This document shows positions 5,064 through 28,413 of a stretch of 28,413 nucleotides of DNA, in pieces (position 1 is the stretch's first letter; every line of letters starts with the position of its first letter). A program made the position numbers and the translations under genes. Origin of the DNA: a virus. The notes under the pieces are model-generated. The model saw only the letters and a program-made list of their open reading frames with translations, ran no database searches and was not told the DNA's origin. The stretch lies in IMG/VR virus record IMGVR_UViG_3300048908_000284, positions 1-28,413 of that record; one strand, given 5' to 3'.

Positions 5064-5065
5064 GG

Positions 5066-6244: not shown

Positions 6245-6258
6245 GAGGTGTCCTCCTC

Positions 6259-14616: not shown

Positions 14617-14626
14617 GACGGGCCTC

Positions 14627-15082: not shown

Positions 15083-15092
15083 GGCGTATCGC

Positions 15093-15353
15093 CTACTTGG
15101 CCCTGTTCGAGGACGCCTTGGCAGGCGTTGCGGGGGCGGCGGCCGGCTCGTCGGCCTTCACCGGCTCCGCCGCCGGCTCCGGCGTCTGGTCTGCCATGTC
15201 GGCGGGCTTGTCCTGTGTGTCCTCCACGGGGACGCCGAAGCCGCGCCACATCGGCAGTTCGTCGCGGCGGACCTGCACACGGTCGCCGGGCACCTTGCCC
15301 TTGTGCCAGAACGTCAGCTCCACGGTGACCTGGTCTGCCGGGTTCTCAGCCAT
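15093..15353 (-). CDS. Small neck-region hypothetical protein (86 aa)
   Basis: ATG start with a GAAGGAG ribosome site. The first 45 residues look folded and beta-rich (QVTVELTFWHKGKVPGDRVQVRRDELPMWRGFG). The remainder is Ala/Pro/Glu-rich, low in complexity, and ends in a basic tip (KASSNRAK). Small proteins with a similar strand pattern occur between the neck and tail genes of actinophages; I know no proven role. It lies between the HK97-gp10-like and tail-terminator genes in the same operon. Confidence 0.65.
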   Translation of the reverse strand: MAENPADQVTVELTFWHKGKVPGDRVQVRRDELPMWRGFGVPVEDTQDKPADMADQTPEPAAEPVKADEPAAAPATPAKASSNRAK

Positions 15354-15380
15354 GGCGGTACTCCTTCGTCAGTGATCGCA

Positions 15381-15716
15381 TCAGTGGTCTCCGCCTGCGG
15401 CGTCGAGTGCGGTCGACAGGGTGTAGTGCGGTGGGTGGATGGAGCGGCCGTTGCGGTCGGTCTGCCGGGTGCCGTGCTCCACGTAGATCGCGTAGGGCAC
15501 GTTCGCCTCGACGAACACCTCGCCGTCCGCGCCGGGTTCGGGCACGCGGTGGATGGACGCCTTGTAGCGGCCGGTGTCGACGGGGGCGATGGACTGGGCG
15601 ACCTCCACCACCCGGTCCATGCGCTGCGCGAGATCGTGCTGCACGACATCGGTGTGCGGCAGGTCGTGGAGGGCGTCCTCGTCGACGAAGACGTCGATGC
15701 TGACTTCGCTGCTCAT
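15381..15716 (-). CDS. Head-tail connector / HK97 gp10-like neck protein (111 aa)
   Basis: Start fixed by an ATGA overlap with the preceding gene (ATG at 15716-15714); the open frame upstream of this is not coding. The segment MDRVVEVAQSIAPVDTGRYKASIHRVPE is the typical helix-then-'PVDTGRYKASI' signature of HK97 gp10 family proteins, followed by VPYAIYVEHGTRQTDRNGRSIHPPHYTLSTALDAA, again usual for the family. These proteins sit in the neck or aid joining of tail and head. Size is normal or slightly short. Confidence 0.82.
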   Translation of the reverse strand: MSSEVSIDVFVDEDALHDLPHTDVVQHDLAQRMDRVVEVAQSIAPVDTGRYKASIHRVPEPGADGEVFVEANVPYAIYVEHGTRQTDRNGRSIHPPHYTLSTALDAAGGDH

Positions 15717-16054
15717 GCGCCCTTCACCTCCAGCAGCGTGATGGCCTGCCCGTCCAGCGGCCCCGACTGCTCCACATGGGCTGGCACGCCGTCGATGTCC
15801 CAGGTGCGGCCGTCCCACTGGATGCGGTGCTGGGGAAGCACAGTCGGGGCGGTGCGGGGCAGGTAGAGCTGGGCGCGGGTGATGGTCTGGTCGCCGGCCT
15901 GCTTGGTGCGGGTGGCGAACATGTAGTCGACCGTGCAGCCGGGGATCGGTGTCGATGTGGCGTGTTCCCAGTCGCGGACGGTGGTGTTGTAGTCGCCCGC
16001 CACCAGGGGCGCGTCGAGCAGGGTGACGGTCTGCCGGCCGATGTTCCCGATCAT
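15713..16054 (-). CDS. Head closure / stopper-like connector protein (113 aa)
   Basis: The ATG at 16054 is chosen over an in-frame one at 16072 because it forms an ATGA overlap with the previous gene. The protein is beta-rich: QTVTLLDAPLVAGDYNTTVRDWEHAT, PGCTVDYMFATRT, RAQLYLPRTAPTVLPQHRIQWDGRTWDIDGVPAHVEQSG. This pattern (barrel with a late RIxWDGRTWDIDG strand) is typical of head-tail stopper proteins that plug the portal after packaging. It lies between adaptor-like and gp10-like genes, the expected place. Confidence 0.75.
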   Translation of the reverse strand: MIGNIGRQTVTLLDAPLVAGDYNTTVRDWEHATSTPIPGCTVDYMFATRTKQAGDQTITRAQLYLPRTAPTVLPQHRIQWDGRTWDIDGVPAHVEQSGPLDGQAITLLEVKGA

Positions 16055-16425
16055 CCGATCACCAGCGGCCACATGGTCAGCAGGCCGGAGTTCCGCAGCA
16101 CGAGCGCGGCCTGGGGGCCGATCTTCTGCGCTGGCGAGGTTCCGCCGGCGGGAGCGCGGCGGGTGATCGAGCGTTGCCCGGTGGTCATGGACTGCACGTC
16201 GTCCTGGGCGCCGGTCTCATCTCCCCGCTCGATCATCCAGTGGACCTGCCGCACGCACGCCTTGCGCAGCACGTCCTGGACGGTGAGGTCGGTGGGTTCG
16301 TACATGGCGCCGATCAGGGCGGCGTCGATCGCGTCGGAGGCCTGCTCGAGCAGGCGCAGCGCGTTCGCCGGGGCGGGCTCGGGGGCGAGCCACGCCTCGA
16401 GGTCGCTGATCGTCGCGTACGCCAT
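16051..16425 (-). CDS. Head-tail adaptor (connector) protein (124 aa)
   Basis: ATG start three bases after the stop of the 200-aa gene. The sequence is mostly helical: YATISDLEAWLAPEPAPANALRLLEQASDAIDAALIGA, then VQDVLRKACVRQVHWMIERGDE. This matches the gp6/gp15-type adaptor fold, a helical bundle that docks on the portal ring. The C-terminus (AALVLRNSGLLTMWPLVIG) would reach toward the stopper. It ends in an ATGA overlap with the stopper-like gene. Confidence 0.78.
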   Translation of the reverse strand: MAYATISDLEAWLAPEPAPANALRLLEQASDAIDAALIGAMYEPTDLTVQDVLRKACVRQVHWMIERGDETGAQDDVQSMTTGQRSITRRAPAGGTSPAQKIGPQAALVLRNSGLLTMWPLVIG

Positions 16426-16428
16426 GGC

Positions 16429-17031
16429 CTACTCGCCCGCCTGCTCGGTGTCGCCGGTCGGCTGGGCGCTGGTGCGGGCGTCCTCGACGACCTGCGTGTA
16501 GTCCTGGCATTCGGCCTTGGTGGCGTCCTTGGCCTGGTCCGGGTCCATGCCGAGGGCGATCGCGTGGGCGCGCCAGTCGGCCACGGTGGCGTTCTTCGCG
16601 GGCCGCTCGGGCAGCTCTTCGGCGGGCGTGGCAGGGGATTCGGCGTCCTCGTTGGGGACCGGAGCCTCCTGCCCCTCCCCGAGCGCCTTCTCATGCGCCT
16701 CCACCCACTCCTGGAGCTGGGTGCGGGTGAGGGTGGACGCCTGGCTGGCGTTGAGACCGAGAGCGACCGCGTAGGTGGCCCACTCCCCCGGGTGCGCGTC
16801 GTCGCCCGGCTTCTCGCCGGGTGCGGCACGGTGGTCACCGACCCGGTTGATGGTGTCCGCCTCCGAGCCGTGCACCACCACGAGGGACTTGTTGCCGGCC
16901 TCGACGTCAACCGTCTTGCCGTCGACCGGGCTCAGCTTGCCGGTGGCAACCTGCTTCGCCATCTCCGGGGACAGCGGGTCATCCAGCGTGAGCCGGAGCC
17001 CTCCACTGCCCTGGTATTCGCGGGAGGCCAT
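16429..17031 (-). CDS. Hypothetical head-region protein with an internal helical duplication (200 aa)
   Basis: Lies between the probable decoration gene and the adaptor gene. The N-terminal 65 residues are a small beta domain (GGLRLTLDDPLSPEMAKQVATGKLSPVDG, SLVVVHGSEADTINRVGD). Two related segments of about 35 residues follow: near 82-117 (EWATYAVALGLNASQASTLT) and near 151-186 (DWRAHAIALGMDPDQAKDAT). They are joined by a Pro/Glu/Ala linker. Each resembles a short helix-turn-helix bundle of the SAP, LEM or Rho-N type, which would suit nucleic-acid or protein binding, but this is only a visual likeness. Position suggests a capsid or neck accessory. Confidence 0.7.
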   Translation of the reverse strand: MASREYQGSGGLRLTLDDPLSPEMAKQVATGKLSPVDGKTVDVEAGNKSLVVVHGSEADTINRVGDHRAAPGEKPGDDAHPGEWATYAVALGLNASQASTLTRTQLQEWVEAHEKALGEGQEAPVPNEDAESPATPAEELPERPAKNATVADWRAHAIALGMDPDQAKDATKAECQDYTQVVEDARTSAQPTGDTEQAGE

Positions 17032-17034
17032 GGG

Positions 17035-17415
17035 TCAGTTCCACGCCTTCGGCATCTTGAAGACGGTGATCGTGCCCGTGAACCCGGACTCGAAGTCCAC
17101 GTACAGGGTCGAGCCGTCCTGCTGGTAGTGGGCGCTGGTGAACGGGCCGAGGAACTCCTTGCCCGTGTTCGCGCCGACGGAGACGGTCAGGTCGCCCTGT
17201 CCGGCCATCCACGCCTGGATGCCGGAGCCGGTGCGCACGAAGACGTTCTTCGCGCCGGTCGCCGTGTTCGTGACCCGGATCAGGGTGTGCTCGGGGTCGG
17301 CGCCGTTGATGACGACACCGTTGGTGACGAGGGTGGAGTCGATGGTCGTCCCGGCAACGTCGGTGAGGTGGCTGTTGGGGACGAACGGGGTGTAGCTGAC
17401 GGCGGTGCGCGCCAT
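17035..17415 (-). CDS. Probable head decoration or minor capsid protein (126 aa)
   Basis: ATG start after a perfect AGGAGG. The protein is almost all beta: VSYTPFVPNSHLTDVAGTTIDSTLVTNGVVINGADPEHTLIRVTNT, KNVFVRTGSGIQAWMAGQGDLTVSVG, KEFLGPFTSAHYQQDGSTLYVDFESGFTGTITVFKMP. It lies directly downstream of the major capsid gene. Actinophages often encode such beta-rich proteins there, and a jelly-roll or decoration role is likely. A short hairpin (17456-17468) separates it from the capsid gene. Confidence 0.65.
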   Translation of the reverse strand: MARTAVSYTPFVPNSHLTDVAGTTIDSTLVTNGVVINGADPEHTLIRVTNTATGAKNVFVRTGSGIQAWMAGQGDLTVSVGANTGKEFLGPFTSAHYQQDGSTLYVDFESGFTGTITVFKMPKAWN

Positions 17416-17468: not shown

Positions 17469-18326
17469 TCAGGGGTTGACGAAGGCGACGGCGATGCCGG
17501 TGGGGCGCAGGAGCTTCCCGCCGTAGACGTGGAGACCGCGGACGGCGTCGGCGATCGTCGACTGCAGGCGCAGCGCCTCGGTCTCGAGGATCTGCTCGGC
17601 GTAGGTGATGGCCCCGGGGTAGCCGGCCTGGATGACCTGGACGCTGCCGGTGGGGTTGGGGGTGTTGTTCGACTCGAGGATGTCGAAGCCTGCGGCGCGG
17701 CCGACCATGCCGTTGCGGAGGGCCTGGCCTCCGTCGCCGGACTCGTTGACCTTGATGAAGCGGGAGTCGCGCAGCAGGTCGCCGATGTACTCCGGGGAGC
17801 CGACGACGTAGCGGCCCTCGGAGGGGACGTTGGCCCGGTTGAGCTTGGTGCGCAGCGGGACGAGGACCTTGTCGTAGGCGTCGGTCGGGGTGGAGGTGAG
17901 GACGACGGGAGAGCCGGTCGAGCCGATGGTGTTGGCGGAGGCGACACCGGTGTAGAGGGAGGCGACGTAGGCGTCGGCCCGGTCGCGCAGGCCGTAGGCG
18001 GCGTTCTGCGCCATCTGCGCCATGGGGTTGAGGAGGGCCTGCGCCTTGTCCACGTCGTCGATCTTGAACGCGAAGGCCTTGGCCTGGTCGATGACCAGGT
18101 CAGTGCCCGCGGTCTCGACGTCCTCGTAGTTGAGGGTGTCACCCGAGTCGTAGTCGAAGATCGTCGGGTCGCCGATGGTGGTGATGTGCACGGACTGGCC
18201 GTGCGAGCTGATCTCACCCTCATAGTTGCGGTTGACGAGCTGCGGCTGCGCGTAGACGAGGGCGTTGCGAAGAGCCACGAGAAGCTGGGCAGACCAGATC
18301 TCCGGCTTGAAGTTGTTGATCGACAA
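17469..18326 (-). CDS. Major capsid protein (285 aa)
   Basis: Forms the icosahedral shell. The start is TTG (18326), placed six bases after AGGAG; no ATG or GTG nearby gives a sensible N-terminus. Residues 1-50 (FKPEIWSAQLLVALRNALVYAQPQLVNRNYEGEI) and GQSVHITTIGDPTIFDYDSGD form the usual N-arm and E-loop region of a scaffold-dependent coat. DLVIDQAKAFAFKIDDVDKAQA and the repeated helix MAQMAQNAAYGLRDRADAYVASLY mark the spine helix. GRYVVGSPEYIGDLLRDSRFIKVNE and GFDILESNNTP belong to the axial domain. It follows a scaffold gene, and no maturation protease is encoded nearby, which suggests an uncleaved coat. Confidence 0.93.
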   Translation of the reverse strand: MSINNFKPEIWSAQLLVALRNALVYAQPQLVNRNYEGEISSHGQSVHITTIGDPTIFDYDSGDTLNYEDVETAGTDLVIDQAKAFAFKIDDVDKAQALLNPMAQMAQNAAYGLRDRADAYVASLYTGVASANTIGSTGSPVVLTSTPTDAYDKVLVPLRTKLNRANVPSEGRYVVGSPEYIGDLLRDSRFIKVNESGDGGQALRNGMVGRAAGFDILESNNTPNPTGSVQVIQAGYPGAITYAEQILETEALRLQSTIADAVRGLHVYGGKLLRPTGIAVAFVNP

Positions 18327-18343: not shown

Positions 18344-19150
18344 CTACCGGCCGCCGCCCAGATACGCGTTGAGGCGTCCCTCTGCCACGGCCTTGGTGAT
18401 TTGTTCGGGGTTCATCCGCTTGACGTCCTCCGCACCCAGCTGCCGCTTCTGACCCGGGGCCCCGTCCATCGGCGCACCCCCCGCGGGGACTGCGGGCTTC
18501 GGCTCGGCCGCCTTCGCGGCAAGCTTCGGGTTCGCCTCCACCGCCTGCTTGACCGCCTGCTCCACGCTGGCAGCGAAGTCAGGAGCGGACGGGTCGAGCT
18601 TGGCGATGGCCTGGGCGAAGCCCCGGGAGTCCAGAAGGCTGTCGGGGTCGCCGCCGTGCTTCCCGGCCGACTTGTAGACGGCGAGCTCCACCTGGGTCTG
18701 GCGGGCGGCGTCCTCGAACTCCTTGGTCCGGGACTGCTCTTCGGCCAGCTTCGCGGTGAGCTCTTCAGGGGTGGGCGGCTTCTCCTCGCCGGTGTCGAGA
18801 CCGAACGCCGCGGCGACCTTCTTCATCAGGTCGGCCTGCTGCTCTTCGGCCTTCTTCTCCGCTGCGATGCGCTTGGCCTTCTCGGCTTCGACGTCGCCGC
18901 GGATGTTCTCCACGAGCTTTTGGAACTTCTCGGGGTCGAAGTCGCCTTCGAACTTGGGCGCCTTGGCCTTGGGTTCGGTCGGCGGCTCCGCGGCCGGGGG
19001 TTCGGCGGGAGATGCGGGAGGAGCGGGCGGTGTTGCGGGTGCGGCCGGCTCTGGCGGAGTCGGCGCGGGAGTGCCGTCGGGCGCGGGCGGGGTGGCCGGC
19101 TGGCTGCCGGGGCCTGCGGGCGTGCTCGTGGGCTGGGCGGGGGTCGTCAT
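18344..19150 (-). CDS. Capsid scaffolding protein (268 aa)
   Basis: The frame is open to 19204, but the ATG at 19150 has a perfect AAGGAGG eight bases away and begins the coding pattern. Residues 1-75 are Pro/Ala/Thr-rich and disordered. Residues 80-165 form a charged coiled coil (KFQKLVENIRGDVEAEKAKRIAAEKKAEEQ, then ELTAKLAEEQSRTKEFEDAA). Then come VELAVYKSAGKHGGDPDSLLDSRGFAQAIAKLDPSAPDFAASVEQAVKQAVEANPKL, typical of phage scaffolds. The C-terminus ends EQITKAVAEGRLNAYLGGGR, a small helix likely to bind the coat. First gene of the minus-strand late operon, immediately before the major capsid gene. Confidence 0.88.
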   Translation of the reverse strand: MTTPAQPTSTPAGPGSQPATPPAPDGTPAPTPPEPAAPATPPAPPASPAEPPAAEPPTEPKAKAPKFEGDFDPEKFQKLVENIRGDVEAEKAKRIAAEKKAEEQQADLMKKVAAAFGLDTGEEKPPTPEELTAKLAEEQSRTKEFEDAARQTQVELAVYKSAGKHGGDPDSLLDSRGFAQAIAKLDPSAPDFAASVEQAVKQAVEANPKLAAKAAEPKPAVPAGGAPMDGAPGQKRQLGAEDVKRMNPEQITKAVAEGRLNAYLGGGR

Positions 19151-19307
19151 CCGGGGCCTCCTTGGGCTGCCTGCACGCGGGGCGGCGGAGCCTTGTCCGC
19201 ACACGTGTTGGCATGGATGCTAACCCAAACCTAGGCCCTATGCTGCACAATCAAAGGCGAGATTGCAAGATAGCCTTTGAATCCACGGATCTTTAGGGGG
19301 TGGTGTG
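19151..19307. promoter_or_regulatory. Divergent late control region between the scaffold/capsid and terminase/portal operons
   Basis: The only gap between the two back-to-back structural operons. The scaffold ribosome site AAGGAGG occupies its left end and the AGGGGG of the minor head gene its right end. The middle is less GC-rich than the genes around it and holds the dyad at 19251-19280. Promoters for both directions should lie here, but no consensus -35/-10 pair is convincing. TTGATT followed by TAGGTT (minus strand, about 19253-19226) is a weak candidate for the capsid operon. Confidence 0.65.
19251..19280. promoter_or_regulatory. 30-bp dyad: TCAAAGGC and GCCTTTGA arms around TTGCAA
   Basis: The 8-bp arms (19251-19258 and 19273-19280) are perfect inverses. 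Exactly centred between them, with four bases on each side, is the palindrome TTGCAA (19263-19268). Each arm reads GCCTTTGA toward one of the two divergent operons. The right arm extends to TAGCCTTTGAA, which recurs upstream of the cysteine-peptidase gene. This is the form expected of a binding site for a dimeric regulator or of paired outward promoter elements. Confidence 0.6.
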
Positions 19308-20201
19308 GTGGAGTCCACCAAGAACATCGCCGACACCGCACAGCGCCAGCCCGCCCAACTCCGCGCGCTCGAACACCGCCACGCCGCCGCAGCAGCCCGC
19401 CCCCTGGCCAAGGCCCTCACGGACGCCCAGGCGGACGCCACCAGCCGGTGGCTCCTCGCCACCACCGCCACCCAGCACCTGCCCGCCCCGGCCGAACTCG
19501 CAGCGCTCATCGAGCACATCCGCAAAGCCCTCGCCGCCGCCTTCCACGGCCAGGGCGCGTACGCGATGGCGGAGGCGCAGCGCGCCGCCTACACCGCCGC
19601 CGCCATGGGTGTTCAGCACACCTCCAGGATCGTCGGAATGCTCCGCGGTGTTCCCCCCACCGACATCCCGCCGGAGACCGGCGCCCCCGCCGACCGCGCC
19701 GCTGGGGGCATTCCGGCCGCGGTGCAGGAGGAGCACTCCCACGCCCTGGCCCTGCTGACGACGGCCGCGCTCACCGCGTACGGACTCGCCGGCCTCAAGT
19801 CGGTGTTCGCCCGCGCACGGCGCGCGGTCACCCGCATCACCGCGGGCGTCGCCGTCGCCATCACCTCCGCTGCCGCCCACGCCGCGCTCCTGGTGGCCCG
19901 TCACCTCGGGCCCGGGGTGCGGATGCTGTGGGTGGCCGAGCCGGGCGCCTGCCCAGCCTGCGCCGCCTACGCGGGCCGCACGGTCCGCCCGGGCGGAATG
20001 TTCCCCGGCGGCCTGTCCCTCGACCCGAAGCGCACCGTGTTCCTCAACCCCATCACCTCGCCGCCACGCCATCCGCACTGCAGGTGCGGAGTGATCCCGT
20101 GGCATCCGCGCTGGGTCACCAGCGGCCCCTCGCTGCCCGTCCTGCTGCAGCAGCGCGCCCGCGCCAGCTTCTCCCCCGCTCCCGCCCGAAGGACCGCATG
20201 A
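19308..20201 (+). CDS. MuF-like minor head protein (297 aa)
   Basis: First gene of the plus-strand packaging block. Two GTG codons are adjacent (19305, 19308); the second has better spacing from AGGGGG. The N-terminal two thirds are helical and Ala-rich, as in phage minor head proteins that line the portal side. The C-terminal part has the Mu-F signature: WVAEPGACPACAAYAGRTVRPGG (Cys215, Cys218), then ITSPPRHPHCRCG (His and Cys258, Cys260). These probably bind zinc. MuF proteins normally follow the portal gene; here it precedes the small terminase gene, which is odd. It ends in an ATGA overlap with the next gene. Confidence 0.8.
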   Translation: MESTKNIADTAQRQPAQLRALEHRHAAAAARPLAKALTDAQADATSRWLLATTATQHLPAPAELAALIEHIRKALAAAFHGQGAYAMAEAQRAAYTAAAMGVQHTSRIVGMLRGVPPTDIPPETGAPADRAAGGIPAAVQEEHSHALALLTTAALTAYGLAGLKSVFARARRAVTRITAGVAVAITSAAAHAALLVARHLGPGVRMLWVAEPGACPACAAYAGRTVRPGGMFPGGLSLDPKRTVFLNPITSPPRHPHCRCGVIPWHPRWVTSGPSLPVLLQQRARASFSPAPARRTA

Positions 20202-20737
20202 TGCCCGCACCCTGGCCTCTCCCTGAAGAGTTCCACGACCGAGTGCGTGAGCTGCACGCGCTCGGCTACGGCCGTAACCAGATCGCCCGCGAGATCGGGC
20301 AGCCGCCCGTGTCCGTGTCCCGGACAGCCGAGTACCTGGGTCTCACCTTCGACCGGTCGAAGATCGAGGCTGCGACGAAGGCACGCCTGGCCGACATCGC
20401 GGAGCGCAAGTCGCTGCTGGCCGAGGACCTCCTGGGGGATGCCGAAAAGCTCCGCGCGCAGATGTGGCAGCCGACGACCGTCTACTCCTTCGGCGGCAAG
20501 GACAACACGTACGAGGAGCACGAGTTCGATGAGGCGCCTGCGGCGGAGAAGCGGGCTTTGATGTCGACGGCGGCGACGGCGATCGACCGGGTGATGAAGC
20601 TGCTGCCGGAGCAGGAGTCGTCGAACCTGGATGCGGCCAAGAGCATGCTCGGGTCGCTGGGGGAGGCGCTGTCGGCGTTCTCGCGCAATGAGGATGAGCG
20701 TGAGGCGGAACTGGCCGGGGACGACGGCGAGGGCTGA
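20198..20737 (+). CDS. terS: Terminase small subunit (179 aa)
   Basis: Recognises phage DNA and hands it to the large subunit. The ATG at 20198 overlaps the stop of the minor-head gene (ATGATG; the second ATG is an in-frame option). Residues 8-45 hold a helix-turn-helix (FHDRVRELHALGYGRNQIAREIGQPPVSVSRTAEYLGL). Next come a basic helix (EAATKARLADIAERKSLLAEDLLGDAEKLRAQMW), YSFGGKDNTYEEHEFDEAPAAEKRALMSTAATAIDRVMKLL, and an acidic C-terminal tail, all usual for HTH-type small terminases. The large-subunit gene begins two bases beyond its stop. Confidence 0.85.
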   Translation: MMPAPWPLPEEFHDRVRELHALGYGRNQIAREIGQPPVSVSRTAEYLGLTFDRSKIEAATKARLADIAERKSLLAEDLLGDAEKLRAQMWQPTTVYSFGGKDNTYEEHEFDEAPAAEKRALMSTAATAIDRVMKLLPEQESSNLDAAKSMLGSLGEALSAFSRNEDEREAELAGDDGEG

Positions 20738-20739
20738 CC

Positions 20740-21996
20740 GTGACCACGCTGGAGTCGCTGCCCTTGTCCCGGAAGCAGATCCGGTCGGTTGCTGAGGCGA
20801 CGGTGAAGATTTGCTGCTGGGAGGGTGCGATCCGGTCGGGGAAGACGATCGCTTCCCTGCTGAAGTGGCTGATCTTCGTGGCGAACGCGCCGACGACGGG
20901 CGAGCTCGTCATCATCGGGAAGACCACGCAGACCATCCACCGCAACCTGTTCCTGCCGCTGCAGGACCCTGCCCTGTTCGGGGACATCGCAGCGCTGATC
21001 CAGTACACGCCGGGCGCGCCGACCGCTTCGATCCTGGGGCGGACGGTGCATGTGATCGGCGCGAACGATGCCAAGTCGGAGCCGAAGATCCGCGGTATGA
21101 CGCTGTGTGGCGCGTACGTGGACGAGGTGACGCTGGTCCCGCAGGTGTTCTTCGAGCAGCTCCTGGGCCGCATGTCGGTCCGCGGCGCGCAACTGTTCTG
21201 CACGACCAACCCGGACAATCCGGCGCACTGGTTCATGCGGGACTGGCTGTCGCAGGAGGGCAAGAAGCCGCTGCGCCGGTTCTCGTTCACGATCGACGAC
21301 AACCCGTTCCTGGATCCGGACTACGTCGCCGACATCAAGGCGATGCACGAGGGGTTGTTCTACCGCCGGTTCATCCTCGGGGAGTGGGTGGCGGCGGAGG
21401 GTGCGATCTATGACGCGTGGGACCGGGAGCGGCACATCGTCACCAGCCTCCCGGAGCAGGGCATCCACCGGTGGATCAGCCTCGGCGTGGACTACGGGAC
21501 CTCGAACCCGTTCCACGCCGTGCTGCTGGGCCTGGGCCGGGACCGGCGCTTGTACGCGGCCGCGGAGTGGCGCTACGAGGCGCGGCAGACCCGCAAGCAG
21601 CTCACCGACGCCGAATACAGCGAGCGGCTGCGGGGCTGGCTGCAGGACGTTACCGGGATCGGCGCGGTGCGCCCGCAGTTCGTCACCGTCGACCCGTCCG
21701 CAGCCTCGTTCACGGCCCAGTTGCGGCGGGACAAGCTCACCCCGACGCCGGCGAAGAACGACGTGATGGACGGTATCCGCACCGTCTCGAGCGTCCTGGC
21801 CTCCAACAAGCTGTTGGTGCACGCCTCGTGCAAGGCGCTGATCCAGGAGATCGGCGGCTACTCGTGGGATGACCAGGCTGCCCTGCGGGGTATCGAGCAG
21901 CCCCTGAAGGTCGCCGACCACGGGGTCGACGCACTCCGCTACGGAATCTTCACCACTCGTGCTCTGTGGCACCGGCATCTCGCCCTCGCCGCCTAA
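20740..21996 (+). CDS. terL: Terminase large subunit (418 aa)
   Basis: ATP-driven packaging motor and nuclease. GTG start two bases after the small-subunit stop. Walker A is GAIRSGKT at residues 29-36. Walker B is CGAYVDEV, with Asp128 and Glu129. The coupling motif is TTNP at 155-158. The RNase-H-like nuclease has Asp251 in SLGVDYG, Asp318 in TVDPSAASF and Asp397 in DHGVDALRY. All expected motor and nuclease residues are present, and the length is typical of actinophage enzymes of the SPP1/headful type. It lies directly before the portal gene. Confidence 0.95.
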   Translation: MTTLESLPLSRKQIRSVAEATVKICCWEGAIRSGKTIASLLKWLIFVANAPTTGELVIIGKTTQTIHRNLFLPLQDPALFGDIAALIQYTPGAPTASILGRTVHVIGANDAKSEPKIRGMTLCGAYVDEVTLVPQVFFEQLLGRMSVRGAQLFCTTNPDNPAHWFMRDWLSQEGKKPLRRFSFTIDDNPFLDPDYVADIKAMHEGLFYRRFILGEWVAAEGAIYDAWDRERHIVTSLPEQGIHRWISLGVDYGTSNPFHAVLLGLGRDRRLYAAAEWRYEARQTRKQLTDAEYSERLRGWLQDVTGIGAVRPQFVTVDPSAASFTAQLRRDKLTPTPAKNDVMDGIRTVSSVLASNKLLVHASCKALIQEIGGYSWDDQAALRGIEQPLKVADHGVDALRYGIFTTRALWHRHLALAA

Positions 21997-22022
21997 CCCC
22001 TCCCCTCCCGAAGGAGATCGTC

Positions 22023-23738
22023 ATGCCGCTGCCGCCGTCCGGGAAGACCGTGTGGCCGCCCGTCCAGTTCCATGAGCCGTTCGCTGACATCGAGACCTGG
22101 CGCGCCTGGTACGGGGGGGACACGAACCATCTGGCGCAGGTGTATGGCGGGCCGGCGGCGTTCATGTCGAACGCGAAGGCGCGGACCTTCTTCGACCTGA
22201 ACAAGCCGGCCCAGTTCCGGGGCGGGATCGTGGGCGGCCTGGCGCGGATGTTCTGGGGGGAGCCGATCACGCCGGGGCAGCCGCACGCGAAGCTGCACAT
22301 TCCGATCGCCGCGGACATTGCTGAGCTGTCGGCGAATCTGTTGTGGGCGGATATTCCGTCGGTGACGGTGGACACGGACTCGGTTGCCGGGGCTGAGGCG
22401 TTGGTGGCGACGCAGGATCAGATCCACCGGTATCTGGATGACCGGGGGCATGCGTCGTTGCGGGAGGGTGCGGAGATTTCGGCGGCGCTGTCGGGGGTGT
22501 ATGTGCGGGTGGTGTGGGACCTGTCGCTGCGGCCGCGGCCGTGGATGGATGTGCTGGGCCCGGATGCGGTGGTCCCGGAGTGGCGGTGGGGGCAGCTGGC
22601 GGCGGCGACGGTGTGGCGGGAGCTGGCGCCGCAGGGGGGGACGACGGAGGTGTGGCGGCTGCTGGAGCGGCACGAGCCCGGCAGCATCGAGTACGGGCTG
22701 TATCGGGGGGATGCGGACACACTGGGCATGATGATGGCGTTGGACGACCATCCGGAGGCCGAGGATCTGGTGGGCCGGGTCGACCAGAACGGCGTGGTGG
22801 CGACGGGCGTTCCCCGGCTGCTCGTCAGCTACATGCCGAATGTGGGGCCCAACCGGTGCTGGGATCACCTGCCGGAAGCGAAGGCTTTCGGCCGCAGCGA
22901 CTTCGCGGGCATCGAGTCCCTGATGGGCAGCCTCGACGAGGCCTGGACGTCATGGATGCGCGATTTGCGGCTGGGGAAGGCGCGGATCATGCTGCCGCAG
23001 TCGATGCTCGAGGTGGAAGGCCCGGGCGGCGGCGGCCTGTTCGACCTGGACCGTGAGGTGTTCGTGCAGTTGAACATGCTGGACGACGGGTCCGGCGCGT
23101 CTTCCCTGGCGATGAACCAGTTCGCGATCCGGGTGGAGGAGCATGAGCGGACGTGTAACGCGCTGCGCGGGCAGATCCTGTCCAGCGCCGGGTACAGCGC
23201 GCAGTCGTTCGGTGACGAGGGGAATGTGGCGGTGACGGCGACGGAGGTCGCCGCGCGGGAGAAGCAGTCGTTGACGACCCGCGGTCTGAAGATCCTGTAT
23301 CAGCGGCCGGCACTGTTGGACGTGCTGACGACGATGCTGTGGGTGGATGCGGTGAACTGCGGGGCGAAGGGCATCGACCCTGCGGCGGAGTTGACGGCGT
23401 CGTGGCCGCAGGCTGTCCAGCCGGACCCGGAGGCGACCGCGCGGACGTTGTCGTTCTTGGAGACGGCGGGGGCGATCTCGACGTGGATGAAGGTGAAGAC
23501 GCTGCATCCGGAGTGGGACGACGAGGATGTGGCGGAGGAGGTGGCGCGGATCCGGGATGACCATGCTGTGGCGAACCCGATCCCGGCCGGCGACCCGTTC
23601 GGCACGGCAACCGCGGGCGGCCCGGACGGCCAGGACCCGACAGCCGCGGGCGAGGACGGCGCACCCGAGGACGCGGGAGACGGGCAGGAGCCCGGGGACC
23701 CGGCCGACCCCAGGCAGGCGCAGGGGGCGGCAGCATGA
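22023..23738 (+). CDS. Portal protein (571 aa)
   Basis: The dodecameric DNA gate at the capsid vertex. The frame opens at 21966, but the ATG at 22023 has a strong GAAGGAG site and falls after the terminase stop. The start MPLPPSGKTVWPPVQFHEPFADIETWRAWYGGD is typical of SPP1-gp6-like portals in actinophages. AADIAELSANLLWADIP, EISAALSGVYVRVVWD and GPNRCWDHLPEAKAFGRSDFAGIESLMGSLDEAWTSWMRDL show the wing, stem and clip order. AREKQSLTTRGLKILYQRPALLDVLTTML marks the crown helices. The last 45 residues are an acidic, Gly/Pro-rich tail. The next gene starts in an ATGA overlap. Confidence 0.93.
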   Translation: MPLPPSGKTVWPPVQFHEPFADIETWRAWYGGDTNHLAQVYGGPAAFMSNAKARTFFDLNKPAQFRGGIVGGLARMFWGEPITPGQPHAKLHIPIAADIAELSANLLWADIPSVTVDTDSVAGAEALVATQDQIHRYLDDRGHASLREGAEISAALSGVYVRVVWDLSLRPRPWMDVLGPDAVVPEWRWGQLAAATVWRELAPQGGTTEVWRLLERHEPGSIEYGLYRGDADTLGMMMALDDHPEAEDLVGRVDQNGVVATGVPRLLVSYMPNVGPNRCWDHLPEAKAFGRSDFAGIESLMGSLDEAWTSWMRDLRLGKARIMLPQSMLEVEGPGGGGLFDLDREVFVQLNMLDDGSGASSLAMNQFAIRVEEHERTCNALRGQILSSAGYSAQSFGDEGNVAVTATEVAAREKQSLTTRGLKILYQRPALLDVLTTMLWVDAVNCGAKGIDPAAELTASWPQAVQPDPEATARTLSFLETAGAISTWMKVKTLHPEWDDEDVAEEVARIRDDHAVANPIPAGDPFGTATAGGPDGQDPTAAGEDGAPEDAGDGQEPGDPADPRQAQGAAA

Positions 23739-23941
23739 GCGGGCATCAGCATCTGCTGGCCAAGGATCCGACGCGGCTCGGCTGGAAGTGCACGGCCGCG
23801 GGCTGCGGGTTCTTCAAGCCTGCCGAGGAGTTCGACGGCATCGCGGTCCTGATGGGACAGGGGGAACAGCCGTGCCGCAACGGGCTACAGTCGAATCACG
23901 GCAGGACGTGCACGCCTGAGCCCAGCGTTCCGCGACGTTGA
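23735..23941 (+). CDS. Small Cys-containing hypothetical protein (68 aa)
   Basis: Begins in an ATGA overlap with the portal stop, so it is co-translated. Contains GWKCTAAGCGFFKPAEEFDG (a CxxxxC pair), a third Cys in EQPCRN, and a fourth in GRTCTPE. The four Cys residues with His nearby suggest a small zinc ribbon, inferred from spacing only. Last gene of the plus-strand block; an intrinsic terminator follows 30 bases later. Function unknown. Confidence 0.7.
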   Translation: MSGHQHLLAKDPTRLGWKCTAAGCGFFKPAEEFDGIAVLMGQGEQPCRNGLQSNHGRTCTPEPSVPRR

Positions 23942-23970
23942 TGGCCAAGGGTCTCAGACCCCACGTAGAG

Positions 23971-24000
23971 CCCCGCTCCTCGTGAGCGGGGTTTCTTGTT
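23971..24000 (+). terminator. Rho-independent terminator of the packaging operon
   Basis: CCCCGCTC (23971-23978) pairs exactly with GAGCGGGG (23984-23991) around a 5-base loop and is followed by TTTCTTGTT. This is the best classical terminator in the window. It ends plus-strand transcription after the Cys protein gene. Read from the other side it lacks a T-run, although the hairpin could still affect the convergent minus-strand transcript. Confidence 0.85.
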
Positions 24001-24032
24001 GCGGAAGTTAGGTGGGCGGGGGCTTGCGCGGG

Positions 24033-24197
24033 TCAGCGGCGTCGGACGCCTCGGCGCGGCGGTAGCGTTCGGAAGTCGGTCTTCTTGCCGTACGTGCGCT
24101 TACGCGCGTTGCTCCAGCGGCGGGCGAACGGCTTCTTCGTCGCCCACATCCACCTCCATTGCGCCTGGCTGCGTACTTTGCCCCGGTTTCCCGGCAT
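24033..24197 (-). CDS. Small very basic hypothetical protein (54 aa)
   Basis: Two starts are possible: ATG 24221 (62 aa) or ATG 24197 (54 aa). The second is preferred, with AGGAAGG eight bases upstream. The protein starts MPGNRGKVRSQAQWRWMWATKKPF and is full of Arg, Lys and Trp, ending PPRRGVRRR. Short basic proteins with a 'KVRSxAQWRWM' start recur in actinophages, where their role is unknown; binding to nucleic acid is possible from charge alone. Last gene of the right-hand minus-strand block, facing the packaging operon terminator. The 78-base gap upstream (24198-24275) shows no other gene. Confidence 0.65.
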   Translation of the reverse strand: MPGNRGKVRSQAQWRWMWATKKPFARRWSNARKRTYGKKTDFRTLPPRRGVRRR

Positions 24198-24275
24198 GGG
24201 GATCACCTTCCTCTCCCCCATAGCCTGCCCACCTATGCCGCGTTTCCGCAGGTCGCATCCGAACCAGCAGGTAAC

Positions 24276-24491
24276 TTACGGAGTCTTGTTCGGGTCGATC
24301 AGGTCGGCGCAAGCCGCTGGAATGTCAGCCGCGTCCCACCAGTTCCACGAATCACCCTCCCCGGAACCGTGAACGTTCCGGATGCGCTCGGCCAGCTCGT
24401 GGGCGTGGGTGTCGAGTACTTCCTTGATGACGTCTTCGGGCAGGCCGTGATCGGCGAGAAGCTCACGGGCTGAACGCGGGGGTTGCTTCAT
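24276..24491 (-). CDS. Small acidic hypothetical protein (71 aa)
   Basis: The ATG at 24491 overlaps the stop of the preceding gene (ATGA); the longer open frame upstream is a shadow. The protein has a helical N-terminal half (SARELLADHGLPEDVIKEVLDTHAHELAERIRNVHG) followed by a Trp-rich acidic segment (DSWNWWDAADIPAACADLID). The 'ELLxDHGxPEDVI...HAxELAExIR' pattern looks like small proteins common in Streptomyces phages and integrative elements, with no known function. It is coupled to the DUF6221-like gene, so the two may work together. Confidence 0.72.
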   Translation of the reverse strand: MKQPPRSARELLADHGLPEDVIKEVLDTHAHELAERIRNVHGSGEGDSWNWWDAADIPAACADLIDPNKTP

Positions 24492-25060
24492 GAAGTTCCC
24501 TCCTCCCCAGCCGACTGGTAGAGCGGGATAGTGCGCAGCTCGGGCCCGAGGATGCGCATCGCCTTCTCCTGCGGGCTCGTCTCCGCGGCCAGCACCTCTG
24601 CGGGCACCAGCTCGGCGGTGAGCGACGCACGGAGCGCCTCGGCCCACACTTCGCTGACCGCCACACCCAGCACCGACGGCCCATCCGGCCTTCGCGGCAC
24701 CCACTCCGGCCGCTCCAAGGCCGCCAGGATCTCCTCCGTGAGTCCGTAGCCCTCCGCCACGGCCAGGAGGACCGGGCAGTCGTTGGCGTGCGCGGTCACC
24801 CAGTCCTGACAGATGCCTTCCTGCCCGCATCCCTCACACACGTTCGGGTCACCGCCCCAGGCGCGGTCCTCAGAGCTCCAGCCGACGCCACGCGGCCTAT
24901 GCACCTCGAGGAGATTCCGGTCCGCCGCACACCGGCGGAAGACGACGCGCGCAACGTTGTCGGCGCCCAGGTGGATCTGCCGCAGGGCGCTCTCCTGGTC
25001 GCGGACGCTCCGCTCGGTTGCCGTGATCCGCTCCTGGATCCAGCCGTACAGGTCAGGCAT
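24488..25060 (-). CDS. DUF6221-like Cys-containing protein with C-terminal extension (190 aa)
   Basis: ATG start after AAAGGGAA. The N-terminal 110 residues resemble the plus-strand protein at 1484-1843: YGWIQERITATE, RRCAADRNLLEVH, a CEGCGQEGIC cluster (three Cys), and NDCPVLLAVAEGYGLTEE. A small zinc site is plausible. The remaining 80 residues (ERPEWVPRRPDGPSVLGVAVSEVWAEALRASLTAELVPAEVLAAETSPQEKAMRILGPEL) are a helical extension not found in the other copy. Its stop overlaps the next start (ATGA). The family has no assigned role that I know; it is common in Streptomyces genomes and mobile DNA. Confidence 0.78.
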   Translation of the reverse strand: MPDLYGWIQERITATERSVRDQESALRQIHLGADNVARVVFRRCAADRNLLEVHRPRGVGWSSEDRAWGGDPNVCEGCGQEGICQDWVTAHANDCPVLLAVAEGYGLTEEILAALERPEWVPRRPDGPSVLGVAVSEVWAEALRASLTAELVPAEVLAAETSPQEKAMRILGPELRTIPLYQSAGEEGTS

Positions 25061-25079
25061 GACGTTCCCTTTCTGCTGC

Positions 25080-25346
25080 TCACGCGCGCGATTCTGAGCT
25101 GGACCGGTCCGGGTTTTCGGGCCATCTGTGGAGGGCGTATCCGTGGCCTGCGAGGACGATGCTGATGCCGATGGTTCCTCGCCAGGTGTGGTGTCCGACG
25201 GGTCCGATGCCCCAGCGTCGGGTGGTGGCGTGGTAGTGCCAGGTGTTCCAGCGGTGTTGGCGGTGTCGCCAGGTGTCGTAGGCGAGGGTGAGGTTGGCGA
25301 GGATGGTGATGCTGAGGGCGCCTTGGAGGAGGGGTGTGGGGTTCAT
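25080..25346 (-). CDS. Small membrane protein (88 aa)
   Basis: ATG start with AGGAG about ten bases upstream. Residues 6-24 (LLQGALSITILANLTLAYD) form a likely membrane helix. The middle is rich in His, Arg and Trp (TWRHRQHRWNTWHYHATTRRW). Residues 58-75 (GTIGISIVLAGHGYALH) form a weaker second helix. The tail is polar. No family recognised. It is encoded between the nuclease and the DUF6221-like protein. Small membrane proteins beside Streptomyces tra genes often belong to the spread (spd) group, and that is one guess here. Confidence 0.62.
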   Translation of the reverse strand: MNPTPLLQGALSITILANLTLAYDTWRHRQHRWNTWHYHATTRRWGIGPVGHHTWRGTIGISIVLAGHGYALHRWPENPDRSSSESRA

Positions 25347-25374
25347 GGGCGGGGTTCTCCTGGGTGTGGGTCGA

Positions 25375-25405
25375 CCCCGTCACCGGGGGAAGGTTGGTGA
25401 CGGGG
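25375..25405 (-). terminator. 10-bp hairpin after the Mrr-like nuclease gene
   Basis: CCCCGTCACC (25375-25384) and GGTGACGGGG (25396-25405) are perfect inverses with an 11-base loop. It lies in the 167-base gap (25347-25513) between the nuclease and the small membrane protein. No T-run follows, so it may be a factor-dependent stop, an attenuator or an mRNA-stabilising end. I see no further gene in this gap; a weaker GGTGCT/AGCACC pair lies nearby. Confidence 0.45.
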
Positions 25406-25513
25406 CCGTGGTGCCTGGGTGCTGGGGCGGGGGACGGCCGAGCACCTGGGCTGACGTGTTTGATGCTGCCGTATGGGGGGCGGTTTGTCTGAGGGTCTTC
25501 CCCTGGGCGCGGT

Positions 25514-26182
25514 TCAGGTCCAGGGTGGGGTGCCGCCGTTGGCCCACTGCTCGAGGCCGTGGCCGTCGATGAGTGCGAGGGCGTTGCGGCCGAGGTCGGC
25601 GTTGGTGGCGAGGGCTTCGGCGGTGAAGGCGGAGGTGGTGACGATGATGCCGGCGTGGCAGCGGTGGGCGATGACGGAGCCGACGATTTCGCGGACGGTG
25701 GGGCCGCTGACGTTGTTGCCGGGTCGGTAGTGCTTGCACTGGATGAGGATGCGGCGGCCGTTGTGGAGGGTGATGAGGACGTCGGCGCCGCGGTCGCCTG
25801 TTTGTCCGGTTTGTTCGGCGTGGGCGACGTGGTGGTGGTCTTCGCGGGCGAGGGCGGTGATGGCGTGTTCGAAGCGGGCGGGGGTCATGCGCTGGAAGGT
25901 GTGGAGGGTGCGGTGGCCGCGGGCGGGGAGGTGGGTGCGCTGGACGTTGATGTCGGGGAGGCGGTGTGCGGCGCGCTGGAGCCAGGCGGGGCGGCGCGCA
26001 GCGATGACGAGGCCGATGGCGGCCACGCCGACGACCAGGGCGGTGATGATGGGCCAGGTCTTGGCGATGCCGATTGCGATGAGGGCGGCACCGAGCCACC
26101 ACCAGCCGAGGCGGGGTAACCGGCGGCCATGGCCGCTCCGTGTGCGGGGCCTGCGGCGGGGCGTGTGCTGGGTGGCGGTCAT
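25514..26182 (-). CDS. Membrane-anchored Mrr-like restriction endonuclease family protein (222 aa)
   Basis: A DNA-cleaving domain tied to the membrane. Residues 1-24 are basic. Two hydrophobic segments follow at about 25-41 and 44-62, then a short basic linker. Residues 98-205 match the Mrr catalytic domain: TPARFEHAITALAREDHHHV with Glu105, GDRGADVLI with Asp134, and LIQCKHY with Gln148 and Lys150, so the D-(Q/E)xK nuclease signature is intact. After it comes VREIVGSVIAHRCHAGIIVTTSAFTAEAL, also usual in the family. The ATG overlaps the stop of the translocase gene (ATGA), so the two are co-translated. Family members cut modified or foreign DNA in some hosts; others are of unknown role in mobile elements. 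Target and orientation in the membrane are unknown. Confidence 0.82.
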   Translation of the reverse strand: MTATQHTPRRRPRTRSGHGRRLPRLGWWWLGAALIAIGIAKTWPIITALVVGVAAIGLVIAARRPAWLQRAAHRLPDINVQRTHLPARGHRTLHTFQRMTPARFEHAITALAREDHHHVAHAEQTGQTGDRGADVLITLHNGRRILIQCKHYRPGNNVSGPTVREIVGSVIAHRCHAGIIVTTSAFTAEALATNADLGRNALALIDGHGLEQWANGGTPPWT

Positions 26183-28413
26183 TGGGTGTCGTCCTCCGGG
26201 TCGGTGGTGTCGTCCGTGCCGGGGCCGAGGCCGTAGTAGCCGCGGACTTCCTTGCCGTCCTTCTTCTGCCGGTGGATCTTCCCGGTCTTGGTGAGGCGGG
26301 ACAGGGCGTTGTCGAGGGTGGATCCCTCAAGTTTGGCGAGGGCGCCGATCTGGTCCTTGTGGCTGTAGTTGATGTCGATGCCGGCCGGGTCGGCCAGGTT
26401 GTTCAGGGCCGCCAGGATCTTGTCGTCGGCGCTGGCGGGCTTCTTCGGGGCGGACGTGATGAGGAAGGCGGGTCCGCCGTCCGGATCGGTGTCCGGGTCG
26501 GTGTCGTCTCCGGCCATGAGTTCGGCGACCAGGGTGTGGCGGTCGTCCCAGTCGGGCCAGTCGGAGGGGACGGTGATGCGGTCTTCGTTGATGTAGGCGC
26601 TGGCGTCCTCGAGGTCGTAGGTGCGGCCCATGGCGCAGACGCCGTCGGTGGTCATGAAGTAGCCGAGGCCGAAGGTGGATTCGGGGTCTTCGATGTGGAC
26701 GTCGTCGGTGTAGACGAGGGTGCCGGTGTCGTCTCCGGTCCAGGTGGCGGGGATGTCGGCGGGGTTGACGGATTCCATGCCGGGGGGCAGGTCGATGAGG
26801 TGGCGCTGGGAGGAGTCGGAGCGCAGCATGATGGATCCGCCGGAGCCGACGATGTTGTCGCGGATGGCGGAGTCGCCGCCCACTTCGGCGAGCTGCAGGA
26901 GTTGGTTGGCGAGGACTTCGGAGACGCCGAGGGAGCGTCCCTTCTTGGCGATGAGGCCGACGGCCTGGGTGGCGCGCGCCCGGTGTTTGGCCTTCTCGCC
27001 GAGGAGGGTGGAGATCTCGTCGCCGATGAACACGACGTGCAACATGACCTGCGGGTCGAAGTTCTTCTGCTTCATCTGGCCGGTGAGGTCAATGCGGTGC
27101 TTGACGAGCGCCTCGGCAAGGAGGAGAGCGCCCATGGCGCCGTCTTCGCCGAGTCCGGTGTAGGCGGCCATCTTCTCGATAGCGGGGTTGGAGGAGCCCT
27201 TGGGGTCGGCGTAGATGATGACGGCGCCGGCGAGGTGCGCGGCGAGGGCGATGAGCTGGAGGACGCCGCCCTTGCCGGAGCCGGTGACGCCGGAGACGAA
27301 GAGGTGACGGGCGCCGAGTTTGGGGTCGAGGAGCTGGGCGCGGACGGGGCGGCCGGAGACGGCGCGGCCGATGCGGAAGTAGCCGCCGGTGGAGGGCAGG
27401 AGGGCGTTTGGGCCGGGGAAGGGGATGCCGGCGCGGAGGGGGTTCTCCTTCATCAGGCGGACGACGGCGGTGCGGGGGTTGTTGGTGGGTTCGTAGGACA
27501 GGAGGAGGTGGTTGGTGCGCAGTGCGCCGACGAGGTCGCGCATGTTGGGGGTGGGCAGGGCGTCGGTGTCGTCGTTGGCGACGACGTAGGCGACTTCGCC
27601 GCCGGTGCCGGGGTCGGGCTGGGCCTGCTCGAGGTGGGTGCCGTCCATGACGCCGCCGGAGCGTGCCGCCCATTTCTTCCAGGCGCCGGTCAGGGTGTTG
27701 GTGTTCAGCTCGGTGGGTGCGGTGAGGTTGACAGCGATGTGGCGTTCCCCAGCGTGGGCCCCCTTGCGGAAGGTGATCCATTCGGCGGGGACGGGTCGGT
27801 AGACGGAGGAGATGACGTCTTTGGTGACGGTGACGCTGGCGCCGGGGGGTGCGGTGATGGTGCCGATCCAACGGGTGGCTGTGGCGTGGTGGACGGTGAG
27901 GTGTTGCTGTTTGTGGCTGCCGGTGTGGGGGTTGGAGATGTAGTCGTGCCAGCGGCGGGCGATCTTCTGCGGGTCGGTGAGTGGCGCCGGAAGGTGCGGG
28001 GGGGTGGCCGCGGGTGCGATGGCCGTCTGGTGGGCGGCGCGGGGCCTGCGGCGGCGCAGGAAGCGGCGCAGCTGCCAGGGCACGAGGGAGACAGCGCTCC
28101 ACCAGGCGAGGGAGACGATGCCGGGCAGCGGGTTTGCGGGGATGTCGAGGATGCCAGCCATGAGGGCGTCGGTGCCCGGGCCGCCGGAGAAGGTGCCCAT
28201 CCCGAGGGCGATGCCGGTGGTGAGGGTGGAGACGAACATGGGCAGGCGGTGCGCTTGAAGGATGTCCCCGGCGGGGAGCTGGTCGAGAACGTGCTGCGGG
28301 AGGAGGTCGCCGATGTTCGCGGTCAGGACGCCGGCGGTGCCCAGGTAGGCGAGGTCGACGGCGAGTTGGGCGTCGGAGCCCAGGAAGGGGGCGAGGACGC
28401 CGGCCACGACGGG
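26179..28413 (-). CDS. Tra/FtsK-SpoIIIE-type DNA translocase, 5' end beyond the window
   Basis: Probably a membrane-bound ATPase that moves double-stranded DNA, as Streptomyces plasmid and AICE transfer proteins do. At least 745 codons are present. A GTG at 28407 could be a start, but the frame stays open to the edge. Numbering from that GTG, residues 10-112 contain several hydrophobic stretches (VDLAYLGTAGVLTA, MFVSTLTTGIALGM, GIVSLAWWSAVSLVPW) before an Arg-rich stop-transfer segment. Walker A is GVTGSGKGG from residue 373. Walker B is HVVFIGDEI with Asp463 and Glu464. KGRSLGVSEVLANQLLQLAEVGGDSAIRDNIVGSG follows, as in FtsK motors. Near the C-terminus, DKILAALNNLADPAG and LDNALSRLTKTGKIHRQ resemble a winged helix that could bind DNA sites. 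The C-terminus is acidic. A chromosomal FtsK is unlikely given the context. Confidence 0.85.
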   Translation of the reverse strand, partial: PVVAGVLAPFLGSDAQLAVDLAYLGTAGVLTANIGDLLPQHVLDQLPAGDILQAHRLPMFVSTLTTGIALGMGTFSGGPGTDALMAGILDIPANPLPGIVSLAWWSAVSLVPWQLRRFLRRRRPRAAHQTAIAPAATPPHLPAPLTDPQKIARRWHDYISNPHTGSHKQQHLTVHHATATRWIGTITAPPGASVTVTKDVISSVYRPVPAEWITFRKGAHAGERHIAVNLTAPTELNTNTLTGAWKKWAARSGGVMDGTHLEQAQPDPGTGGEVAYVVANDDTDALPTPNMRDLVGALRTNHLLLSYEPTNNPRTAVVRLMKENPLRAGIPFPGPNALLPSTGGYFRIGRAVSGRPVRAQLLDPKLGARHLFVSGVTGSGKGGVLQLIALAAHLAGAVIIYADPKGSSNPAIEKMAAYTGLGEDGAMGALLLAEALVKHRIDLTGQMKQKNFDPQVMLHVVFIGDEISTLLGEKAKHRARATQAVGLIAKKGRSLGVSEVLANQLLQLAEVGGDSAIRDNIVGSGGSIMLRSDSSQRHLIDLPPGMESVNPADIPATWTGDDTGTLVYTDDVHIEDPESTFGLGYFMTTDGVCAMGRTYDLEDASAYINEDRITVPSDWPDWDDRHTLVAELMAGDDTDPDTDPDGGPAFLITSAPKKPASADDKILAALNNLADPAGIDINYSHKDQIGALAKLEGSTLDNALSRLTKTGKIHRQKKDGKEVRGYYGLGPGTDDTTDPEDDTQ

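What the first reader, a model, noticed from the sequence alone, without database searches (positions are those of the whole stretch)
19308..28413. Complete siphovirus module next to a plasmid/AICE-type Tra translocase: possible conjugative prophage or phage-plasmid
A full set of packaging, capsid and tail genes ends at a terminator at 24 kb, and the next block encodes an FtsK/Tra-type motor with membrane segments, an Mrr-like nuclease and a small membrane protein. In Streptomyces such Tra proteins alone can move double-stranded DNA between mycelial cells. An element carrying both could spread by virions and by mycelial conjugation. The sequence shows the adjacency; the dual lifestyle is inference. 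A phage genome that simply carries an FtsK-like gene, or a prophage next to an AICE, are the main alternatives.
Basis: partly seen in the sequence, partly recalled or inferred. Interest (0 to 1): 0.62.

Follow-up and report, generated by a model that had tools for sequence, protein, structure and literature searches.

The report
Conjugative phage-plasmid with swappable virion
This DNA is about a third of a roughly 90 kb Streptomyces phage-plasmid that carries both a set of virus-particle genes and a DNA pump of the kind used in mycelial mating; such elements are already known, but its relatives swap whole particle-gene blocks and whole mating-gene blocks almost independently on one shared plasmid backbone.

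Summary
The window is a complete 28,413-bp IMG/VR contig, so nothing lies right of 28413. A siphovirus head/tail module ends at 23.94 kb and is followed by an Mrr-type nuclease, a small ORF and an FtsK-fold Tra motor cut off by the contig end. It is not a chimera or chance neighbour: the same junction occurs in complete circular 88-93 kb Streptomyces plasmids. The motor's closest relatives are plasmid proteins, none from isolated phages. A fragment of a conjugative phage-plasmid is the best reading.

That concept is known: Streptomyces plasmid-phages pZL12 and pFP4 are reported to conjugate and to make virions. The window differs from pZL12 in both parts: its motor is only remotely related and its virion genes are unrelated.

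New here is the pattern. At least five virion modules and several motor lineages sit at this junction on one backbone. Three comparisons show it: NBC_01435/NBC_01369 share tra (91% nt) but not virion; NBC_01369/NBC_01005 share virion (99% nt over 22 kb) but not tra; NBC_01005/NBC_01590 share tra (92%) but not virion. On the Tra tree the window's virion type has four origins. Virion production and conjugation were not testable here.

The parts
26179..28413 (-). TraB-like FtsK-fold DNA translocase (744 aa seen, 5' end cut by the contig end): N-terminal membrane helices, P-loop motor, C-terminal winged-helix-like domain
   Evidence: model pLDDT 80, FtsK motor Z 24.7 and TcpA Z 24.4; NCBIfam plasmid_TraB E 2.4e-4 far under its cut-off; homologues at about 40-73% identity in plasmids
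25514..26182 (-). Mrr-type nuclease, 222 aa, with hydrophobic N-terminus; overlaps the end of tra
   Evidence: Pfam Mrr_cat 9.6e-23; homologues at the same place in NBC_01483, L009, L013, L043 and L070
25080..25346 (-). small ORF, 88 aa, one hydrophobic segment
   Evidence: no family match
24488..25060 (-). 190 aa protein of unknown function, recurrent at this junction
   Evidence: No family match; homologues in L009, L012, L013, L015
23978..23991 (+). terminator-like stem after the packaging block (weak)
23735..23941 (+). 68 aa ORF at the end of the packaging block
   Evidence: no family match
21966..23738 (+). portal protein
   Evidence: phrog_533 E 1e-101
20740..21996 (+). terminase large subunit (PBSX-like)
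   Evidence: Terminase_6N 2.2e-14; phrog_2 2.4e-46; 86.5-88.7% identical in plasmids of QHH-9511 and NBC_01483
20198..20737 (+). probable terminase small subunit
   Evidence: phrog_5536 (unknown function) 1.2e-56; role inferred from position
19305..20201 (+). MuF-like minor head protein
   Evidence: Phage_Mu_F 0.005, phrog_115 4.4e-6
18344..19204 (-). probable scaffold protein
   Evidence: phrog_15186 3.6e-58, phrog_2592 head scaffolding 1.1e-4
17469..18326 (-). major capsid protein, P22-coat-like
   Evidence: phrog_267 1.7e-71; Phage_capsid_4 2.9e-12
14032..17415 (-). head-tail connectors, tail terminator and major tail protein
   Evidence: phrog_2322, phrog_501, phrog_541, phrog_123, phrog_117
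7197..13052 (-). tape measure protein with a metallo-endopeptidase-like region, 1951 aa
   Evidence: phrog_4197 4.8e-190; metallo-endopeptidase profile matches around residues 1336-1490
188..7194 (-). distal tail protein, tail-tip, fibre and spike genes; the module continues past the contig's left end
   Evidence: phrog_106, phrog_538, phrog_11699, phrog_19005

Best explanation
The window is about a third of a roughly 90 kb phage-plasmid of Streptomyces or a close relative. It replicates as a plasmid (inferred from relatives). It can package itself into siphovirus particles using the module at 0-24 kb (genes shown, production inferred). Its FtsK-fold Tra protein probably assembles at the septum or hyphal-tip membrane and pumps double-stranded plasmid DNA into a neighbouring hypha, as Streptomyces TraB does (fold and plasmid kinship shown, activity inferred). 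The junction between tra and the packaging genes is a boundary between two exchangeable blocks: related plasmids keep a colinear replication, partition and regulation backbone while replacing the whole virion block, or the tra block, or both (shown by sequence comparison). The exchange is most simply explained by homologous recombination in the shared flanks (inferred).
For: Same gene order in complete circular plasmids: QHH-9511 (TerL 87%, Tra 53%), S. europaeiscabiei (TerL 62%, Tra 43%), NBC_01483 (TerL 89%, pZL12-type motor). Tra homologues in plasmids, none in INPHARED. FtsK/TcpA fold. Relatives carry ParA/ParB, an HTH initiator-like gene with a DciA-type neighbour, SSB, GntR-UTRA regulator and tyrosine recombinase. 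Exchange chain on one backbone: NBC_01435/NBC_01369 91% nt around tra and no detectable homology from 9.2 to 39.9 kb; NBC_01369/NBC_01005 99.05% over 22.2 kb of virion block, no match across the tra genes, backbone mostly 77-97%; NBC_01005/NBC_01590 92% over 7.4 kb of tra. On the Tra tree virion type 1 needs 4 changes, all forced by starred branches. TerL5 is 96% identical in L009 and L064, whose Tra are 53% identical.
Against: The contig holds no replication, partition, lysis or integrase gene, so plasmid state is inferred from relatives. No clt/TRS-like repeat array was found in 23.7-26.3 kb. Tra scores far below NCBIfam's TraB cut-off (19.7 against 800 bits). In S. ambofaciens, pSAM1, a relative of this family, gave almost no virion reads in one medium (PMC11302927), so carriage of virion genes does not prove virion production.
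Confidence: 0.85

Rival explanations
1. The element is a phage-plasmid, but the FtsK-fold protein serves its own partition, multimer resolution or movement across septa inside one mycelium, not transfer to a recipient.
For: FtsK and TraB share the motor fold; no oriT, clt array or recipient-side gene is visible; some V1 elements carry only remotely related motors at this place.
Against: Homologues at about 40% identity occur on large plasmids, including contexts where no virion genes were found within 10 kb, and the fold matches conjugation coupling protein TcpA as well as FtsK. [quoted passage not shown]
Confidence: 0.2
2. A prophage lying next to an unrelated AICE or plasmid; the adjacency is an accident of integration.
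For: Tra-type motors also define AICEs; a tyrosine recombinase is present in relatives.
Against: Virion and tra blocks are neighbours in complete free replicons and in many independent lineages; no tRNA gene lies in the window and no host gene lies between the blocks.
Confidence: 0.03
3. A defective phage-plasmid turning into a plain conjugative plasmid: the virion module is a relic and only conjugation works.
For: Published P1-like elements lose phage genes while gaining conjugation functions (PMC10879196); pSAM1 gave almost no virion reads in one medium (PMC11302927).
Against: The window's virion genes are open and full-length over 24 kb, and virion blocks are conserved and exchanged whole.
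Confidence: 0.12

Closest known systems
Streptomyces plasmid-phage pZL12 / phage phiZL12 (GQ919031, 90,435 bp; Zhong et al. 2010)
   Same: About 90 kb plasmid with ParAB, a GntR regulator, and an FtsK-like gene (pZL12.71c) near the terminase end of a virion module; reported plasmid and lytic-phage cycle and conjugal transfer (title and citing text; gene table; paper itself not held)
   Different: No BLAST similarity between the window's Tra and pZL12.71c, and none between the virion proteins compared. Window virion: divergent packaging and capsid blocks, P22-like coat.
Plasmid-phage pFP4 (Chen et al. 2012)
   Different: Sequence not compared here
Plasmid of Streptomyces sp. QHH-9511 (NZ_CP046906, 91,197 bp, circular)
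   Same: Same virion type (MCP 87%, TerL 87%, portal 77%) and same Tra family (53%)
   Different: A GIY-YIG nuclease and DUF6221 genes replace the Mrr block; Tra reading frame longer at the C-terminus (976 aa)
Streptomyces TraB and AICE conjugation
   Same: FtsK-homologous motor directing transfer of double-stranded plasmid DNA (PMC4170104); membrane N-terminus and C-terminal winged helix as in TraB (own knowledge of TraB; model)
   Different: Below the TraB family cut-off; element about 90 kb with virion genes; no clt found locally
P1/SSU5-type phage-plasmids
   Same: Temperate-phage genes on a plasmid replicon
   Different: P1-like phage-plasmids nearly all lack mob/oriT (PMC10879196). The title of the 2021 survey cited there stresses conserved phage and variable plasmid genes; here a conserved plasmid backbone carries variable phage blocks.

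Membership tests
Streptomyces conjugative plasmid-phage (pZL12/pFP4 kind) | structural gene set for virions | tested here: met
   lysis genes not in the contig
Streptomyces conjugative plasmid-phage (pZL12/pFP4 kind) | FtsK-type transfer motor on the same element | tested here: met
Streptomyces conjugative plasmid-phage (pZL12/pFP4 kind) | autonomous replicon with replication and partition genes | tested here: inconclusive
   Absent from this 28 kb fragment; present in complete relatives QHH-9511, NBC_01483, NBC_01435, NBC_01369 and others
Streptomyces conjugative plasmid-phage (pZL12/pFP4 kind) | infectious virions | not testable with these tools
   Needs culture
Streptomyces conjugative plasmid-phage (pZL12/pFP4 kind) | conjugal transfer | not testable with these tools
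   Needs mating and pock assays
Streptomyces TraB | FtsK-fold motor with membrane N-terminus | tested here: met
   Fold of one chain; long N-terminal helices in the model; hexamer formation not tested
Streptomyces TraB | C-terminal winged helix binding TRS repeats in clt | tested here: inconclusive
   Predicted H-H-H-E-E at residues 662-729; no repeat array at 23.7-26.3 kb; no consistent array in a quick 8-mer scan of relatives
Streptomyces TraB | sequence above the NCBIfam plasmid_TraB cut-off | tested here: not met
   19.7 bits against 800: so 'TraB-like', not TraB
AICE | chromosomally integrated, small, with Rep, Int/Xis and TraB and without virion genes | tested here: inconclusive
   Virion genes adjoin the motor; closest complete relatives are free circular plasmids; integration of this copy unknown

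The most novel reading that the evidence does not exclude
Streptomyces phage-plasmids have two adjacent exchangeable blocks, one for leaving as virions and one for moving between hyphae, on a common replicon. Recombination re-pairs them freely and recently, so one plasmid lineage can change its entire particle without changing its replicon, and can change its conjugation motor without changing its particle.
Probability: 0.72. Interest if true: 0.6.

Novelty: new variant of a known kind. Interest (0 to 1): 0.5.

Why it matters
Papers read here describe phage-plasmids as gaining conjugation functions when they lose phage functions. Here both persist side by side across a large Streptomyces group, and plasmid typing lists the examples read as non-mobilizable, probably because relaxase-based schemes do not see FtsK-type transfer. 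The natural swaps give near-matched pairs (same tra with different virion; same virion with different tra) that make it directly testable which route spreads the element, and under what conditions.

Tried and rejected
Megablast of 1-24 kb against INPHARED: no match. tblastn of Tra against INPHARED: no match at E<=1e-5, although pZL12 is held there, since its motor is of another lineage. tRNA scan for an att site: none. clt-like repeats near tra: none. Looking right of 28413: impossible, as the contig ends there. Prophage beside an AICE: rejected because complete plasmids show the same junction. Assembly chimera: rejected for the same reason. Pfam alone would have left the motor undecided (HerA_C E 0.0066, under cut-off), so the structure was predicted. 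Some remote motors at the same place in other type-1 elements (L075-L084) have only weak profile support, so they are called motor-like. The original pZL12 paper and the 2021 phage-plasmid survey are not held.
Full report
What the window is. Search of the window's own record shows that it is a whole IMG/VR virus contig of 28,413 bases, classed linear. Nothing can be read to the right of 28413, and the left end stops inside the tail-tip genes.

Observation. Gene calling by codon-position GC and family searches give two divergent virion blocks. On the minus strand, from 19.2 kb leftwards: scaffold, P22-like coat protein, connectors, tail terminator, major tail protein, a 1951-aa tape measure protein and tail-tip genes. 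On the plus strand, 19.3-23.9 kb: MuF-like protein, probable TerS, TerL, portal and a 68-aa ORF. A weak terminator-like stem lies at 23978-23991. On the minus strand beyond it: a 190-aa protein, an 88-aa small ORF, an Mrr-type nuclease (Mrr_cat 9.6e-23) and a 744-aa motor whose 5' end is cut by the contig end. The divergent layout was not mentioned, and 'complete' cannot be claimed.

The motor. Pfam gives only sub-threshold matches and NCBIfam finds plasmid_TraB at E 2.4e-4, far below its cut-off. An AlphaFold2 model from 26 homologues (mean pLDDT 80) matches the FtsK motor domain (Z 24.7, 334 residues, rmsd 4.0) and the conjugation coupling protein TcpA (Z 24.4, 310 residues, rmsd 8.4). Long N-terminal helices and an H-H-H-E-E domain at 662-729 agree with the membrane and winged-helix parts of Streptomyces TraB (own knowledge). 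Homologues are in 102 plasmid records, all Streptomyces or Kitasatospora, 58 of them over at least 80% of the query, and in no INPHARED record at E<=1e-5. I call it TraB-like.

Same junction elsewhere. The 91-kb circular plasmid of Streptomyces sp. QHH-9511 has the same virion type beside the same Tra family. Two S. europaeiscabiei plasmids have diverged versions (TerL 62%, Tra 42-43%), and IMG/VR contigs L070 and L071 do too. By hand count over, 23 of 24 plasmids of 84-94 kb with a full-length homologue also carry a virion module; Kitasatospora indigofera does not. Other type-1 virion contigs carry a large motor-like ORF of another lineage on the opposite strand beyond the portal; some of these rest on weak profile matches. 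Complete relatives carry parAB, an HTH initiator-like gene with a DciA-type neighbour, SSB, GntR-UTRA regulator and integrase. On relatives closest to the window's tra (L009), the genes that would lie right of 28413 are a 440-aa-type protein and a DUF2637 membrane protein.

Independent exchange. I found five terminase types with this Tra family or the pZL12 motor; types 1 and 4, and 3 and 5, are remote relatives, the other pairs show no significant similarity. Pairs with a common colinear backbone give a chain. NBC_01435 and NBC_01369: about 91% nt identity around tra, backbone pieces at 68-93%, and no match between 9.2 and 39.9 kb of NBC_01435, which is the virion block. NBC_01369 and NBC_01005: 99.05% over 22.2 kb of virion block, continuing mostly at 98-99% in further pieces up to tra, then no match across the tra genes, then backbone pieces mostly at 77-97%. 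NBC_01005 and NBC_01590: 92% over 7.4 kb of tra region with different virion genes. Further cases: L060 and L064 share tra at 89% nt with different terminases; L009 and L064 share a 96% identical terminase with 53% identical Tra. On a maximum-likelihood Tra tree, virion type 1 needs four changes, all forced by well-supported branches, and the window's nearest neighbours carry types 5 and 2.

Mechanism. Shown: gene content, predicted motor fold, conserved junction, exchange of whole blocks. Inferred: plasmid state of this copy, virion production, conjugation, and homologous recombination in shared flanks as the exchange route. [quoted passage not shown] No clt-like repeat was found next to it.

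Known or new. Conjugative plasmid-phages of Streptomyces are known: pZL12 (Zhong et al. 2010, cited; its paper is not held) and pFP4 (Chen et al. 2012, cited in PMC4170104). pSLE1 was annotated by its synteny with pZL12 (PMC4487206). I did not find the independent exchange of virion and transfer blocks described in the papers I could search, but subscription papers and the 2021 phage-plasmid survey are not held, so priority is uncertain. A caution: pSAM1 gave almost no virion reads in one medium, though strongly expressed in another (PMC11302927).

Noticed in passing
window 19204-19305: The virion module is split into divergent operons, with MuF-TerS-TerL-portal facing away from scaffold-capsid-tail; the layout is kept in QHH-9511, NBC_01483, S. 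europaeiscabiei and many IMG/VR contigs.
   Followed up: partly
window 25514-26182: An Mrr-type nuclease with a hydrophobic N-terminus recurs between tra and the virion block with different tra and virion types (L005, L009, L013, L043, L070); other elements have GIY-YIG or HNH genes there.
   Followed up: partly
L004-L006, L085, L086, L095 (plasmids of PLSDB): MOB-suite types these plasmids as non-mobilizable although they carry an FtsK-type transfer motor, so plasmid mobility surveys will miss them.
   Followed up: no
plasmids (e.g. NZ_CP108353, NZ_CP109524, NC_013449): Several type-2 terminase genes match in two pieces with HNH or LAGLIDADG endonuclease genes annotated there, suggesting introns or inteins in the terminase gene.
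   Followed up: no
L087, L088, L091, L093, L096: A PhlD/type III polyketide synthase gene next to an XRE/HTH regulator is a conserved cargo of these phage-plasmids.
   Followed up: no
L003:32755-35035: The Tra gene of the Streptomyces sp. JCM17656 plasmid matches in four pieces across three annotated ORFs, so it looks frameshifted (or mis-assembled).
   Followed up: no
L043 / L072 (S. olivochromogenes 93 kb contig): Carries this Tra and the Mrr gene but none of the five terminase types within 10 kb; a whole-record search with the window terminase found nothing. Possibly a sixth virion type or a virion-free plasmid.
   Followed up: partly
NBC_01590 53.8-58.1 kb and NBC_01435 85.0-89.3 kb: A 4.3 kb backbone stretch is 97% identical between plasmids that are about 70-90% identical elsewhere, another sign of recent recombination among these elements.
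   Followed up: no
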